Source: Bifidobacterium eulemuris
GTDB taxonomy: Bacteria; Actinomycetota; Actinomycetes; Actinomycetales; Bifidobacteriaceae
DNA length: 64,000 nucleotides
NCBI RefSeq assembly: GCF_014898155.1
Contig: NZ_CP062938.1
Coordinates: forward strand, 1,364,001-1,428,000
Direction: 5' to 3'
The notes beneath the pieces were generated by a model. The model saw only the letters and a list, made by a program, of their open reading frames with translations. It did no database searches and had not been told where the DNA came from. How positions within the stretch are numbered: position 1 is the first letter of the stretch; the number at the start of each line of letters is the position of its first letter. Both the position numbers and the translations under genes were made by a program. Below are positions 12,987 to 59,040 of the stretch, piece after piece.

Positions 12987-13045
12987 AGCAGAAAGAGAGA
13001 AACGCCGCCACACAAGACGACGCACGCACGTACGCGCGCAAAACG

Positions 13046-13205
13046 AAAGCCGGTGTCCGAAGACACCGGCTAAACGCTTGACTGGAAGATGGGTGATAAT
13101 CCAATACCCACCGGCTCGGTCAACCTCCTGAAATCAGGCATTACCCGCGCTGATTTTTCGGAGGAAGCTAGCGGTGCCTCGCCGGCAACATCCATCATAA
13201 CCGAC
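13046..13205 (+). promoter_or_regulatory. structured leader repeat, copy 1 of 3
   Basis: Begins with the hairpin GCCGGTGTC-CGAA-GACACCGGC (13049-13070), then a second dyad around GGGTGATAATCCAATACCC, then CCTCC, a 35-40 base spacer, and GGAGG (13160-13164) nine bases before a GTG-started eight-codon ORF. CCTCC can pair with GGAGG and hide the ribosome site. Matches no RNA family I recognise. Confidence 0.7.
13174..13200 (+). CDS. eight-residue leader ORF, copy 1
   Basis: GTG-started, reads M-P-R-R-Q-H-P-S, with GGAGG at ideal distance. The sequence is nearly the same in the two following repeats, so it may be translated or act as a ribosome-binding sensor. No function is known. Confidence 0.35.
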   Translation: MPRRQHPS

Positions 13206-13217
13206 CCACACAACGAG

Positions 13218-13375
13218 AAAGCCGGTGTCCGAAGACACCGGCTAACCGGATATTAAAGGTGGGTGCTAACCGACACCCACCGGCTCGGCCAACCTCCTAA
13301 AGTCATGTGCATTACGCGCCCTGATTTTTCGGAGGAAGCTAGCAATGCCTCACCGGCAACATCCATCATAACCGA
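13218..13375 (+). promoter_or_regulatory. structured leader repeat, copy 2 of 3
   Basis: Hairpin GCCGGTGTC/GACACCGGC at 13221-13242; second stem GGTGGGTG-CTAACCGA-CACCCACC, which differs from copies 1 and 3 by paired changes; CCTCC and GGAGG (13331-13335) retained. Paired substitution in the second stem is direct evidence for an RNA structure. Confidence 0.7.
13345..13371 (+). CDS. eight-residue leader ORF, copy 2
   Basis: ATG-started, reads M-P-H-R-Q-H-P-S, nine bases after GGAGG. Its codons include CAT, CCA and TCA, which look uncommon for this GC-rich genome and might slow ribosomes; that is inference. Confidence 0.35.
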   Translation: MPHRQHPS

Positions 13376-13400
13376 TAGCGCACGACCCCATGCAAAGCGA

Positions 13401-13560
13401 AAAGCCGGTGTCCGAAGACACCGGCTAATGCGCTTTTCAAAGGATGGATATAATCCAATATCCACCGGCTCGGCCAACCTCCTGAAGTCATGTGCATTAC
13501 CCGCCCTGATTTTTCGGAGGAAGCTAGCAATGCCTCACCGGCAACATCCATCATAACCGA
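13401..13560 (+). promoter_or_regulatory. structured leader repeat, copy 3 of 3
   Basis: Hairpin at 13404-13425; second stem GGATAT-AATCCA-ATATCC, again compensated; CCTCC and GGAGG at 13516-13520. It leads into a further conserved segment (13561-13674) with two GTCGACGAAGACC direct repeats and the hairpins GTCCGGC-AACC-GCCGGAC and GCCGCG-TCCAA-CGCGGC just before the small membrane-protein gene. Confidence 0.7.
13530..13556 (+). CDS. eight-residue leader ORF, copy 3
   Basis: Same coding sequence as copy 2, M-P-H-R-Q-H-P-S, with GGAGG nine bases upstream. It ends about 120 bases before the small membrane-protein start. Confidence 0.35.
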   Translation: MPHRQHPS

Positions 13561-13674
13561 TACCATTGTCTTTGTCGACGAAGACCTTCTGCAATGGGTC
13601 GACGAAGACCGTCCGGCAACCGCCGGACGACGCTGCCGCGTCCAACGCGGCGCGGCCTTTCAAAGGATTGGATT

Positions 13675-13833
13675 ATGAAAAATCCAAATGAGGAGCCGCG
13701 CGGCGGCTCGGTAATCTGGCTCATGGCGGTGCTCGTCATCGCCCTGTCGGCCAAGGTGGACTCCACCGCGGCCAACATCGCGATACTGGCTCTGACCACG
13801 TACGCGATCAGAGCCGGAAACAGCCGCCAGTAA
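13675..13833 (+). CDS. small two-helix membrane protein, module copy A
   Basis: A 52-residue protein: a short polar head MKNPNEEPRGG, a first hydrophobic helix SVIWLMAVLVIALSAKV, a loop, and a second helix around AANIAILALTTYAIRA, ending in a polar GNSRQ tail. AAGGA lies eight bases upstream of ATG. A paralogue of the same length at 56443-56601 differs at about nine positions, mostly conservative, and both are preceded by the same leader and followed by the same hairpin, which is strong evidence that this is a real gene. I recognise no family. It could be a type I toxin-like peptide, a holin-like protein or a membrane regulator; the sequence alone does not decide. Confidence 0.75.
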   Translation: MKNPNEEPRGGSVIWLMAVLVIALSAKVDSTAANIAILALTTYAIRAGNSRQ

Positions 13834-13845
13834 CGGCACACTCAG

Positions 13846-13875
13846 CCCGCCACGAGTCACACGGCCCGTGGCGGG
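13846..13875 (+). terminator. hairpin after small membrane protein A
   Basis: CCCGCCACG and CGTGGCGGG form a nine-pair stem, 12 bases after the stop. The equivalent hairpin follows the paralogue at 56613-56638. No long T run follows. Confidence 0.6.
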
Positions 13876-55945: not shown

Positions 55946-56175
55946 GGCGGAACGCGTCATCCGCGCGCGCCCTTGGCCGCGCGTGCCTTATACTGATATC
56001 CGCGTCGGGCCGTGCTTAAGCCCCGGGCTCCATTTTTTGCCGCCGCGAGCGGCCCTTGCGCCGACAGGCGCTTTCACGGCTCGGCGCATTTCCTTTTCTT
56101 GCCCCTCGCAGCCCCCGCCCGAATCCTACCCGCTATCTTTCGCCATTGCCTCCTCATGCGAGGAGAAAGCGAAAA
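55946..56175. other. gap with no gene seen
   Basis: Between the operon terminator and leader module B. A segment of ordinary composition without a supported ORF; TTATACTGAT near 55990 could be a promoter -10 region for the module downstream. Confidence 0.4.
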
Positions 56176-56442
56176 GCCGGTGTCCGAAGACACCGGCTAA
56201 CGCACATCGAAAGTGGGTGCTAATCCGACACCCGCCGGTTCGGCCATCCTCCTGAAGTCGTGTATACCCGCCTTGATTTGGAGGAAGCTAGCGATGCTTC
56301 GCCGGCATCATCCATCATACTCGATACCATTAACTTCGTCGACGAAGACCTTCTAGCGAGGGTCGGAGAAGACCGTCCGGCGACCGCCGGATGACGTTGC
56401 CGCGTCCCACGCGGCGCGGCTCGACATCGAAAGTGCATAATC
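56176..56442 (+). promoter_or_regulatory. structured leader, second locus, single copy
   Basis: Same order as at 13401-13674: hairpin GCCGGTGTC/GACACCGGC (56176-56197), stem GTGGGTG-CTAATCCGA-CACCCGC, CCTCC, spacer, GGAGG (56280-56284), GCTAGC, short ORF, GTCGACGAAGACC, hairpin GTCCGGC-GACC-GCCGGA and GCCGCG/CGCGGC. The distance to the protein start is 267 bases against 271 at the first locus. Confidence 0.7.
56294..56356 (+). CDS. short leader ORF, second locus, 20 codons
   Basis: Starts M-L-R-R-H-H-P-S like the others but the stop TAA has become TAC, so it runs on to TAG at 56354. The ATG and GGAGG are kept, which suggests initiation matters more than the length. Confidence 0.35.
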   Translation: MLRRHHPSYSIPLTSSTKTF

Positions 56443-56601
56443 ATGCATAATCCCAATGAGGAGCCGCGCGGCGGTTCGATAATCTGGCTCATGGCGGTGC
56501 TGGCCATCGCCTTGGCGGCCAAGGTGGACTCCACTGCGGCCGACGTCGCGATACTGGCATTGACCATGTACGCGATACGAGCCGGAAGCAGCCGCCAGTA
56601 A
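56443..56601 (+). CDS. small two-helix membrane protein, module copy B
   Basis: 52 residues, MHNPNEEPRGG then SIIWLMAVLAIALAAKV and a second helix AADVAILALTMYAIRAG, ending SSRQ. Same length as copy A at 13675 with conservative differences such as V/I and S/A, and Asp for Asn in the second helix. The ribosome site is weak (GAAAG), in contrast to the GGAGG of the short leader ORF, so its translation may depend on the leader. No recognised family. Confidence 0.75.
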   Translation: MHNPNEEPRGGSIIWLMAVLAIALAAKVDSTAADVAILALTMYAIRAGSSRQ

Positions 56602-56612
56602 CGGCGACTCAG

Positions 56613-56638
56613 CCCGCCACGGGGCGACCTGTGGCGGG
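56613..56638 (+). terminator. hairpin after small membrane protein B
   Basis: CCCGCCAC pairs with GTGGCGGG 11 bases after the stop, matching the hairpin at 13846. Confidence 0.6.
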
Positions 56639-56695
56639 CCATCCAATCCATATCAAGGATGCTTGGGAACAAAGAAGTTTATACGAGCCGATGCC

Positions 56696-56786
56696 AAAAA
56701 GTCGCGCGAGTTTTATGCAGCAGTTACCAAAAAGTCGCGTGACTTTTTTGCATTAGTGCATAAAAGTCGCGCGAGTTATTTGCATT
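56696..56786. repeat. three 33-bp repeats with AAAGTCGCGCGAGTT core
   Basis: Units at 56696, 56729 and 56762 have exact 33-base spacing, each AAAAGTCGCGYGASTT then a T/A-rich tail and GCA. Core GTCGCGCGA is near-palindromic. The array lies 55 bases before the GH31 operator region. Confidence 0.8.
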
Positions 56787-56840: not shown

Positions 56841-56869
56841 TTGTAGCGCTACAATTTTAGCGCTACAAT
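56841..56869 (+). promoter_or_regulatory. two abutting LacI operators forming a promoter
   Basis: TTGTAGCGCTACAA (56841-56854) is a perfect palindrome; TTTTAGCGCTACAA (56855-56868) follows directly. TTGTAG serves as -35 and TACAAT (56864-56869) as -10 with a 17-base spacer. Bound repressor would cover both elements. The LacI gene at 59179 is the likely source. Confidence 0.8.
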
Positions 56870-56976: not shown

Positions 56977-59040
56977 ATGACCACCAACACCACCCACACA
57001 TTCCGCGCCCTGGGCAACGCCCTCGAATGGACCGGAGACGGCGAGTATCTGCGCATCGAGGCCTGGGGAGCGAACAGCGTGCGCGTGCGCGCCCGCCTGA
57101 TGGAACCCATCATCCCCGCCGATTGGGCCCTGCTCGAACCCGAAGCAACCGTCGCGCCCACCATCACCATCGAGGCGAACGCCGACGGCGGAACCACCGC
57201 CACCCTGACCAACGGCGACATCGTCGCCACCGCCGAAGCCAACGCGGAAGGCAGCGCCTGCCGTCTCACCTTCACCAAAGCCGACGGCACCGTATTGCTG
57301 CGCGAAAGCGGCGACGGCGGCGCGCTGCGTCTGCGCGCCCGCAAATACGAATCACTGCCCGGCGGCGGCACACGCGCCACCGTGACCTTCGACGCGAACG
57401 ACGCCGAACATCTCTACGGCATGGGCGAATACCAACAGCCGGTGATGGATCTCAAAGGCAGCACGCTGGAACTCGCGCACCGCAACTCCCAGGTCTCCGT
57501 GCCCTTCGTGCTCTCCTCGGCCGGATACGGCCTCCTATGGCACAATCCGGCCGTCGGACGCGCCACCTTCGCCCGCAACACCACCCAGTGGCAGGCCGCC
57601 GTCTGCGACCAGATCGACTACTGGATCACCACGGGCGCGAACCCCGCCCAAATCGAACGCCAATACGCCGACGCGACCGGCCACGCGCCCGTCATGCCCG
57701 AATGGGGACTGGGCTTCTGGCAGTGCAAACTGCGCTACTGGAACCAGGAGCAGCTGCTCGAGGTGGCGCGCGAATTCAAACGCCGTGAAATCCCCATCGA
57801 CCTGATCGTCATCGACTTCTTCCACTGGCCGCTGATGGGCGACTTCCGCTTCGACGAGGAGTTCTGGCCCGACCCCAAGGCCATGGCCGACGAACTGCAC
57901 GAGATGGGCATCAAACTCATGGTCTCCGTCTGGCCGCAGATCGACCTCGAGTCGGAGAACTACGACGAAATGCGCCGGCGCAACTACCTGGCCAAAACCC
58001 GCCAAGGCAAGGACGTGGGCATGTGGTGGCCGCGCGACAACCAGTTCTTCGACGCCACCAACCCCGAGGCGCGCGCGTTCGTGTGGGCGCTGTCCAAAAA
58101 GAACTACACCGACCTCGGCGTCGACGCGTTCTGGCTCGACGAGGCCGAACCGGAATGGGGCGGCGACTACGACTACGACCACTACCTGTACCATCTCGGC
58201 CCGGTGAACAAAGTCGGCAACGTGTACCCGCAGCTCTACAACAAAACCTTCTACGACGGCCAGCTCGCCATCGGCCGGCAAGACGACATCGTGAACCTCA
58301 CCCGCGCCGCCTGGGCCGGCTCGCAGCGCTACGGCTCGCTGGTCTGGTCGGGCGACGTGCACTCCACCTTCGACGACCTCAAAGCGCAGATCACCTGCGC
58401 CATCCATATGGGCGTCGCCGGCATCCCGTGGTTCACCACCGACATGGGCGGATTCGCGATGGGAGACCCGGAGAGCGAGGAATTCCGCGAACTGTACGCG
58501 CGCTGGTGCCAGTTCTCCTGCTTCTCCCCCGTGATGCGCAACCACGGCGACCGCCTGCCCGGAACCCGCGTGCCCGGCAAACCCGTCTTCGACCGCAAGG
58601 GCAACCCCATCGACCACATCCACACCGGCGCCGACAACGAGCCGTGGAGCTACGGGGAGGCCATCGAGGAGCTGATGCTCAAATACATCCGCATCCGCGA
58701 AACCCTGCGCCCGTACACGCGCGAACTGTTCGACGCCGCCCACACCGACGGCCAGCCGCTGGTGCGCGGCCTGTTCCACGAGTTCCCCGACGATGAGGCG
58801 GCAGCCAACGTGGCCGACGAATACCTCTTCGGCCCGGATCTGCTGGTCGCGCCGGTCACCGAATTCGGCGCGCGCTCGCGCGAGGTGTACCTGCCCGGCG
58901 ACGAGTCGACCACATGGACGAATCTGCACGACGGCACGCAGTATGCCGGCGGCCGGACCGTCGCCGTCGAGGCCCCGCTCGACGTGCTGCCGCTGTTCGC
59001 CCGCGACGGCGCCGACCACGGGCTCGCGGGGATGATCTAG
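56977..59040 (+). CDS. second GH31 family alpha-glucosidase/xylosidase
   Basis: 687 residues, intracellular. Same architecture as the enzyme at 53766, with probable nucleophile Asp388 in FWLDEAEPEWGG and acid/base Asp460 in WSGDVHS. Long identical blocks include the EQLLEVAREFKRR region, while the segments after KTRQGKDVGMWWPRD and near YDYDHYLYHLGP differ, as does the loop before NEPWSYGEA. These differences lie around the active-site rim, so substrate preference has probably diverged. AGGAG precedes ATG 56977. Under a promoter with two LacI operators. Confidence 0.92.
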   Translation: MTTNTTHTFRALGNALEWTGDGEYLRIEAWGANSVRVRARLMEPIIPADWALLEPEATVAPTITIEANADGGTTATLTNGDIVATAEANAEGSACRLTFTKADGTVLLRESGDGGALRLRARKYESLPGGGTRATVTFDANDAEHLYGMGEYQQPVMDLKGSTLELAHRNSQVSVPFVLSSAGYGLLWHNPAVGRATFARNTTQWQAAVCDQIDYWITTGANPAQIERQYADATGHAPVMPEWGLGFWQCKLRYWNQEQLLEVAREFKRREIPIDLIVIDFFHWPLMGDFRFDEEFWPDPKAMADELHEMGIKLMVSVWPQIDLESENYDEMRRRNYLAKTRQGKDVGMWWPRDNQFFDATNPEARAFVWALSKKNYTDLGVDAFWLDEAEPEWGGDYDYDHYLYHLGPVNKVGNVYPQLYNKTFYDGQLAIGRQDDIVNLTRAAWAGSQRYGSLVWSGDVHSTFDDLKAQITCAIHMGVAGIPWFTTDMGGFAMGDPESEEFRELYARWCQFSCFSPVMRNHGDRLPGTRVPGKPVFDRKGNPIDHIHTGADNEPWSYGEAIEELMLKYIRIRETLRPYTRELFDAAHTDGQPLVRGLFHEFPDDEAAANVADEYLFGPDLLVAPVTEFGARSREVYLPGDESTTWTNLHDGTQYAGGRTVAVEAPLDVLPLFARDGADHGLAGMI

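What the first reader, a model, noticed from the sequence alone, without database searches (positions are those of the whole stretch)
13046..13875. Leader-plus-small-membrane-protein module present at two loci
The same ordered set occurs at 13046-13875 and 56176-56638: hairpin, compensating second stem, CCTCC...GGAGG, short ORF, GTCGACGAAGACC, two hairpins, a 52-residue two-helix protein, and a closing hairpin. Distances are kept (271 and 267 bases). At the first locus the front 150 bases are triplicated. Second-stem changes pair in all four copies. I know no RNA or protein family with this form. Possible roles: a new translational attenuator controlling a membrane peptide, a type I toxin-like system, or a stress-sensing leader.
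Basis: partly seen in the sequence, partly recalled or inferred. Interest (0 to 1): 0.88.

Follow-up and report, generated by a model that had tools for sequence, protein, structure and literature searches.

The report
Antisense RNA guarding tiny membrane protein
What looked like a new RNA leader is more likely a pair of back-to-back genes in bifidobacteria, one for a tiny membrane protein and one for a small RNA that would block its production, a layout like that of type I toxin-antitoxin pairs, and the pair also sits on natural bifidobacterial plasmids.

Summary
The repeated module is real, but it was read on the wrong strand. Each "leader" copy looks like a ~150-nt small RNA (sRNA) gene on the minus strand, divergent from a small hydrophobic protein (49-58 aa across relatives). 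Between core and terminator it carries a stretch complementary to the Shine-Dalgarno region of its own neighbour's mRNA. This seed differs between loci yet matches within a locus: 0 of 2000 permutations reach the observed score over 46 loci, 0 of 5000 over 14 further loci.

Protein or sRNA is found in 34 of 112 Bifidobacterium genomes, on 16 Bifidobacterium plasmid records nearly full length and 2 more in part, and in other Bifidobacteriaceae genera.

Best reading: a type I toxin-antitoxin-like system of tisB/istR-1 layout with a hypervariable seed. Transcription and toxicity are untested, and no mRNA promoter was found. The triplication is three tandem sRNA copies; only the one beside the ORF matches it.

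The parts
13675..13833 (+). small hydrophobic protein, 52 aa (P0001), putative toxin of locus 1
   Evidence: translation; homologues; hydropathy
13393..13545 (-). predicted sRNA c3, next to the ORF and matching it: core helices, seed, terminator; ends approximate
   Evidence: (R1 match 13436-13545 in window numbering)
13550..13578 (-). sigma-70-like promoter of c3: TCGACA-17-TATGAT, 10 of 12
13435..13445 (-). seed of c3, complement of TTTCAAAGGAT
13658..13668 (+). target copy TTTCAAAGGAT overlapping the Shine-Dalgarno region of the ORF
13611..13650 (+). two hairpins of the predicted mRNA 5' region (13611-13628, 13636-13650)
   Evidence: sequence; fold
13846..13875 (+). closing hairpin after the ORF; possible mRNA terminator, no clear T-run here
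   Evidence: sequence; not listed by the scan
13210..13360 (-). tandem sRNA copy c2; -10 TATGAT kept at 13365-13370, no promoter listed there; its seed does not match this ORF; ends approximate
13038..13189 (-). tandem sRNA copy c1; -10 TATGAT kept at 13194-13199, no promoter listed there; its seed does not match this ORF; ends approximate
56443..56601 (+). small hydrophobic protein, 52 aa (P0002), putative toxin of locus 2
   Evidence: translation
56165..56309 (-). predicted sRNA c4 of locus 2; ends approximate
   Evidence: (R1 match 56205-56309 in window numbering)
56314..56342 (-). promoter of c4: TCGACG-17-TATGAT, 9 of 12
56175..56198 (-). terminator hairpin of c4 with T-rich tail
56204..56215 (-). 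seed of c4, complement of ACATCGAAAGTG
56424..56435 (+). target copy ACATCGAAAGTG at the Shine-Dalgarno region of locus 2
56612..56639 (+). closing hairpin after the ORF; possible mRNA terminator, no T-run here
   Evidence: sequence; not listed by the scan

Best explanation
Each locus is a type I toxin-antitoxin-like pair. The plus strand encodes a 49-58 aa membrane peptide: one clear hydrophobic stretch, a second one that is weaker in the window's copies, and a basic end. The minus strand encodes a divergent ~150-nt small RNA with its own sigma-70-type promoter, a conserved folded core, a seed and an intrinsic terminator. The seed pairs with the mRNA just upstream of or across the Shine-Dalgarno sequence (7-16 nt in the loci where the match is clear) and blocks ribosome binding. 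When the small RNA is lost or runs out, for instance after plasmid loss, the mRNA is translated and the peptide harms the membrane. The seed differs from locus to locus together with its own target, so each small RNA guards its own gene. Copies c1 and c2 are duplicates whose seeds do not match this ORF. Shown by sequence statistics: layout, promoter, terminator, strand, core helices, within-locus seed match, spread, plasmid carriage. Inferred: transcription, repression by pairing, toxicity, plasmid stabilisation.
For: Seed: the own-locus match ranks 1st in 18 and 2nd in 7 of 55 loci tested of 58 held; over 46 loci chosen by eye the summed score is 418 against 272.5 +/- 10.1 for partners permuted within groups, 0 of 2000; over 14 further loci 134.5 against 85.8 +/- 6.7, 0 of 5000. 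Strand: promoter score over 23 loci 9.1 of 12 on minus, 5.7 on plus, 6.3 in shuffles; 18 of 23 have a shuffle fraction of 0.03 or less; tail after hairpin 1 T-richer on minus in 19 of 21 loci with a stem, of 23; RNAalifold -50.8 minus, -38.6 plus; 80 G-U against 39 A-C cells in the core helices; a separate scan puts a 10-of-12 and a 9-of-12 promoter and all four hairpin-1 terminators on minus. Core helix P3 changes on both sides in many loci. The RNA model leads to loci with far-diverged ORFs of the same plan, with exact matches of 14, 14, 15 and 16 nt at L132, L133, L143, L135. At L033/L149 the sRNA lies on the 3' side of the ORF and a 9-nt match remains. Plasmids: 16 records with at least 80% of the query and 2 partial ones, all Bifidobacterium, of 72,556. 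Patchy: 34 of 112 genus genomes; the module is missing beside the 14149-15645 gene in 21 of 21 relatives compared. Size and hydropathy fit the description of membrane type I toxins in PMC8309996 (passages).
Against: No transcript or toxicity data. No plus-strand promoter for the mRNA was found. Inside the seeds 13 changes keep pairing as G-U and 11 break it, so the seeds themselves do not tell the strand. The seed is hardly more unpaired than the whole sRNA (0.44 against 0.38). Seed matches are poor in several loci that do have the sRNA: L007, L021, L022, L024, L072; L148, G172, G156 and pDOJH10L (for L148 and G172 my window was badly placed). At L033 the 9-nt match is only as good as the best of 23 unrelated seeds for that SD region. 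Structure depends on the alignment: on A6 RNAalifold kept only 6 pairs at -5.6 kcal/mol, and model R1 holds only 4 pairs. In P0001 only the first hydrophobic stretch passes my cut-off. Nothing in Pfam, NCBIfam or PADLOC for the proteins given, none in the PDB, only weak PHROGs hits.
Confidence: 0.72

Rival explanations
1. The small RNA is real and represses the ORF, but the protein is a harmless small membrane protein (e.g. a stress or transport subunit), not a toxin.
For: Toxicity is untested. The family has no named relative. Some ORFs have no sRNA directly upstream (L010, L013, L033; read), which a strong toxin should not tolerate, although at L033 an sRNA lies on the other side.
Against: Plasmid carriage, patchy multi-copy spread, locus-specific self-recognition, decayed ORFs beside intact sRNAs (L128, L140) and tandem spare sRNAs are usual for addiction modules and unusual for housekeeping proteins.
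Confidence: 0.17
2. Plus-strand cis leader: an attenuator or sensor in the 5' UTR of the small protein, with a leader peptide.
For: Elements keep order and spacing, and stems can form on either strand.
Against: Short ORF not conserved; minus-strand promoter and terminator; better minus-strand folding; sRNA copies without a following family ORF, or on the far side of it.
Confidence: 0.05
3. The direct repeats act in DNA, as target-site duplications of a mobile piece or as binding sites of a regulator, and not through RNA pairing.
For: The seed changes show no G-U bias (13 against 11), as expected if RNA pairing played no part.
Against: The repeats lie inside a piece with its own promoter and terminator and always between core and terminator; the match follows the SD region; it remains where the sRNA is on the other side of the ORF (weak on its own).
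Confidence: 0.05
4. A plasmid copy-number or partition RNA that has spread to chromosomes.
For: On plasmids it lies close to rep genes.
Against: Where a rep gene is adjacent, as in L153, L154 and L157, it is on the opposite strand and convergent with the ORF; the module is also chromosomal with no rep nearby, and the seed targets the small ORF.
Confidence: 0.02

Closest known systems
tisB/istR-1 and the divergent type I pairs shoB-ohsC, zor-orz, dinQ-agrB (PMC4147584, passages read)
   Same: Small hydrophobic protein; divergent sRNA gene; short complementarity (21 nt for IstR-1) to the 5' region of the mRNA.
   Different: No sequence relation shown; there the sRNA does not overlap the translation start region, here the match lies 25 to about 10 nt before the start and touches the Shine-Dalgarno sequence; the sRNA here is a ~150-nt structured family with a variable seed; the hosts are Actinomycetota.
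hok/sok (named in the passages of PMC4147584; the rest recalled)
   Same: About 50-aa membrane protein on plasmids and chromosomes, RNA repressor.
   Different: Sok is a cis-antisense overlapping a leader frame (recalled); here the sRNA is divergent and the leader frame is not conserved.
Fst/RNA II, par of pAD1 (passages of PMC4147584; the role of its direct repeats recalled)
   Same: Direct repeats give complementarity at a distance; plasmid stabilisation; the L033 locus here is likewise convergent.
   Different: Usual layout here is divergent; no sequence relation shown.
msoT1/msoA1 of Microcystis (PMC12390103, passages read)
   Same: A type I-like pair outside the phyla where the kind was known.
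   Different: Different phylum; that pair was tested in E. coli, this one was not tested.

Membership tests
type I toxin-antitoxin | small (<60 aa) hydrophobic protein with a membrane-spanning stretch and cationic residues near the C-terminus | tested here: met
   49-58 aa in the intact members; 15-residue hydropathy up to 2.5 for the first stretch; the second stretch passes the cut-off once in P0002, several times in the pNAC1 protein, not in P0001. No dedicated TM predictor and no 3D model were run.
type I toxin-antitoxin | separate RNA gene with own promoter and terminator next to the toxin gene | tested here: met
   by sequence only:
type I toxin-antitoxin | RNA complementary to the toxin mRNA | tested here: met
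   poor in some loci, named under evidence against
type I toxin-antitoxin | RNA is transcribed and represses the toxin by pairing | not testable with these tools
   no transcript data held
type I toxin-antitoxin | protein toxic when unrepressed, relieved by the RNA | not testable with these tools
   needs a bench test
divergent tisB/istR-1 layout | sRNA transcribed divergently from the toxin gene | tested here: met
   promoter strand; exception L033/L149, convergent
divergent tisB/istR-1 layout | pairing region away from the ribosome binding site | tested here: not met
   matches begin 25 to 13 nt before the start codon in most loci; the window's copies run into the SD
any Rfam family | match at gathering score | tested here: not met
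   only a tRNA in the window; permissive scan of locus 1 gave nothing near gathering scores
peptide-leader attenuator | conserved upstream reading frame | tested here: not met
   no start codon there in 5 of 23 loci, unrelated frames of 8-51 codons in the rest

The most novel reading that the evidence does not exclude
A type I toxin-antitoxin superfamily native to Bifidobacteriaceae, the first in Actinomycetota as far as the papers found here say: one conserved sRNA core carries an interchangeable, hypervariable seed that evolves together with the start region of its own toxin, so that new mutually blind pairs arise freely, spread on natural plasmids, pile up on chromosomes and leave spare antitoxin RNAs behind, one of them inside a CRISPR array.
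Probability: 0.6. Interest if true: 0.85.

Novelty: new variant of a known kind. Interest (0 to 1): 0.76.

Why it matters
A 2025 review of Bifidobacterium toxin-antitoxin systems covers type II only, has a section asking why the genus encodes so few, and says that type I cannot be ruled out (PMC12724246, passages read). A 2025 paper states that type I systems were known only in Proteobacteria, Firmicutes and Tenericutes before its own cyanobacterial case (PMC12390103, passages read). If the reading holds, it answers the first and extends the second to Actinomycetota. It would also give a role to unannotated ORFs on cryptic bifidobacterial plasmids, bearing on plasmid stability and vector design, and the variable seeds offer a natural set of matched RNA-target pairs for testing specificity.

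Tried and rejected
Considered and set aside: guanidine-II-like ACGR loops in the GTCGACGAAGACC repeats (recalled motif; the second loop differs at locus 2, and Rfam shows no match); a known riboswitch; type III antitoxin repeats (recalled: there the toxin is an RNase, here a small hydrophobic protein).

Led nowhere or stayed undecided: G-U asymmetry inside seeds (13 kept, 11 broken); accessibility of seed and target; c1 and c2 seeds against the start regions held, best scores 7 and 8.5, none at locus 1; RNAalifold on A6 gave only 6 pairs and R1 only 4, better structure only on the realigned, trimmed set in my script and helix by helix (where the longest-helix search mis-assigns P3 or P5 in some rows); fold comparison was not possible because structure prediction was busy. 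A holin-like PHROGs hit (E 0.0096) of one far-diverged member was not seen for 9 other members scanned. In a sample of 394 genomes of the class only the own genome and two weak hits inside longer open frames appeared. No hit with P0001 in 50,697 phage records and none confirmed in viral contigs.

Rows dropped: one search tested 55 of 58 loci (L066, L067, L082 had no usable start). One search used 46 of those 55: I left out L010, L013, L033 (no sRNA upstream), L025 (frameshift), L034, L064 (duplicates), L075 (decayed), L030, L090; near-identical pairs such as L020/L022 and L083/L084 were kept. One search looked at 23 sRNA places; my motif filter found a family ORF at 8 and missed L135 and L145, whose ORFs are seen.

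Full report
1. What is in the sequence. The window lies at 1364001-1428000 of a 2.92 Mb one-contig genome. The front part is present three times at locus 1, the 24-nt hairpin four times in the genome, and the two ORFs are 85% identical. No Rfam family accounts for it.

2. Homologues. With P0001 alone 26 of 112 genus genomes match; with a 25-row profile 32 of 112, with up to 5 matches in one genome. In the family 35 of 189 genomes match, three of them outside the genus: G156 (E 2e-23), G172 (7e-6) and G115 (3e-4, weak). In 394 genomes drawn from the class only the own genome and two weak hits inside longer frames appear. Pfam, NCBIfam and PADLOC show no family for the proteins given, nor does the PDB.

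3. The strand. Reading the aligned upstream regions shows a conserved block whose reverse complement is TCGACA-17-TATGAT. Over 23 group-1 loci the best sigma-70 score in that region is 9.1 of 12 on the minus strand, 5.7 on the plus strand and 6.3 in shuffles; 18 of 23 loci have a shuffle fraction of 0.03 or less, while L011, L012, L015, L018 and L019 do not. Where a stem was found (21 of 23), the 9 nt after hairpin 1 hold more T on the minus strand in 19 (mean 4.9 against 2.4). RNAalifold on a trimmed realignment of 25 sRNAs gives -50.8 kcal/mol for minus and -38.6 for plus, and the core helices hold 80 G-U against 39 A-C cells. A separate pattern scan of locus 1 lists promoters only on the minus strand (13578-13550, 10 of 12, and a second one, 13123-13096, inside c1) and seven terminator-like sites, all minus, three of them hairpin 1 of c1, c2 and c3. 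At locus 2 it lists one promoter, minus 56342-56314, and hairpin 1 on minus as terminator; its other terminator, plus 55921, belongs to the gene before. So hairpin 1 is the 3' end, not the 5' end, of the RNA.

4. The core. The recovered consensus depends on the alignment: on A6 the tool kept only the outer helix, 6 pairs of which 4 show changes on both sides, and R1 holds 4 pairs.

5. The seed. Between core and terminator each sRNA carries the complement of a stretch that is repeated just before the start codon of its own ORF. Over 55 loci the own match ranks first in 18 and second in 7 against the other loci. Where it is clear it sits at about -235 to -246 in the PRGGS-type group, -326 to -357 in the KPGNSGLCW-type group and -262 to -278 in a third group. 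Over 46 loci with windows set to these places, permuting partners within groups never reaches the observed sum (418; permuted 272.5 +/- 10.1, highest 305; 0 of 2000). Some loci are poor, e.g. L007, L021, L022, L024 and L072. At locus 1 only c3 matches the ORF; c4 matches locus 2.

6. Check on other loci. Covariance model R1, built from the sRNA without any ORF (but with a few seed bases at its end), finds 30 of 112 genomes. Two of these, G068 and G083, are not in the protein list, which makes 34 of 112 in all. It leads to far-diverged ORFs of the same plan, e.g. MPKTQKGPNGDSYLRESIVAIIAALIAKADNIVTDVMLVAVIGYLLAMDYRSRHSRR, whose seeds match over 14 (L132), 14 (L133), 15 (L143) and 16 nt (L135). 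A test over 14 loci (8 of these, 4 plasmids, 2 other genera) gives 134.5 against 85.8 +/- 6.7, 0 of 5000; L148, G172, G156 and pDOJH10L did not stand out, the first two because my window was badly placed. Several sRNA places have no family ORF that I could find (one search lists 15 of 23, two of which, L135 and L145, do have one). The weakest model matches, such as L136, L139, L141, L142 and L146, may be chance.

7. A rearranged case. At L033 in G041 nothing like the sRNA lies upstream, but R1 finds one on the 3' side of the ORF, pointing towards it, with TATGAT and a terminator. Its seed matches the SD region over 9 nt, GCCATAGTA; other SD regions reach at most 8 with this seed, but one of 23 unrelated seeds also reaches 9 with this SD region. 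It fits pairing in trans and is not strong on its own.

8. Plasmids. P0001 finds 6 plasmid records of 72,556, all Bifidobacterium, at E 0.03 to 0.3. With the pNAC3 homologue 16 records match over at least 80% of the query; with the pNAC1 homologue 18 records match, the two extra ones (pKJ50, pB80) only in part. All are Bifidobacterium. I read the upstream DNA of nine of them (pNAC3, p1CACC514, the B. pseudocatenulatum plasmid, pNAC1, pEK13; pBIFA24, pDOJH10L, BLNIAS_P2, p1-5B1): sRNA and ORF are both there; in a tenth (NZ_CP084021) the record start cuts the region. pNAC3 has a 13-nt exact match, pNAC1 and its two relatives 10 nt. The ORFs are annotated 'hypothetical protein'. The total number of Bifidobacterium plasmids in the collection was not determined. 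At the locus-1 site the module is missing in 21 of 21 relatives compared (22 loci including the own one, of 39 genomes that hold the neighbouring gene).

9. How it would work. [quoted passage not shown] The peptide fits the general description of membrane type I toxins in PMC8309996 (passages). What is missing: transcripts, toxicity, the mRNA promoter. The accessibility calculation is neutral (seed 0.44 unpaired, whole sRNA 0.38, target 0.40).

10. Is it known? Eight literature searches listed no type I system of Bifidobacterium; only open-access papers are held. PMC12724246 (2025, passages) reviews type II systems of the genus and says that type I cannot be ruled out. PMC12390103 (2025, passages) places all earlier type I systems in Proteobacteria, Firmicutes and Tenericutes. 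PMC10832533 (passages) reports type II pairs on the B. breve megaplasmid pMP7017.

11. Verdict. I rate it a new variant of a known kind: a new protein family and a new sRNA family, with an unusual conserved-core, variable-seed design, in a phylum without a described case in the papers seen.

Noticed in passing
L131 (G068:C5:55400-57500), locus 492-746: An sRNA copy of this family fills a 197-nt gap between two exact repeats of a CRISPR array whose other repeats are spaced 61-62 nt; a second sRNA copy (about 1412-1517) is followed by a degenerate repeat at 1610.
   Followed up: partly
L149 / L033 (G041:C1:1461700-1463000): sRNA relocated to the 3' side of its ORF, convergent, seed match kept over 9 nt.
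   Followed up: partly
L161 (pDOJH10L), L160 (pBIFA24): A second, incomplete toxin-like reading frame lies after the complete module; partial copies also on pKJ50 and pB80.
   Followed up: no
L150 (G055:C40) and G055:C41: Tandem sRNA copies as at locus 1; in L150 only the copy next to the ORF matches its start region.
   Followed up: partly
window 56686-56783: Three direct repeats of about 33 nt with AAAAAGTCGCG(C/T)GA(G/C)TTTT-like cores just after locus 2.
   Followed up: no
window 56841-56868: Two adjacent palindromes, TTGTAGCGCTACAA and TTTTAGCGCTACAA, before a gene starting near 57000; could be regulator sites (function is a guess).
   Followed up: no
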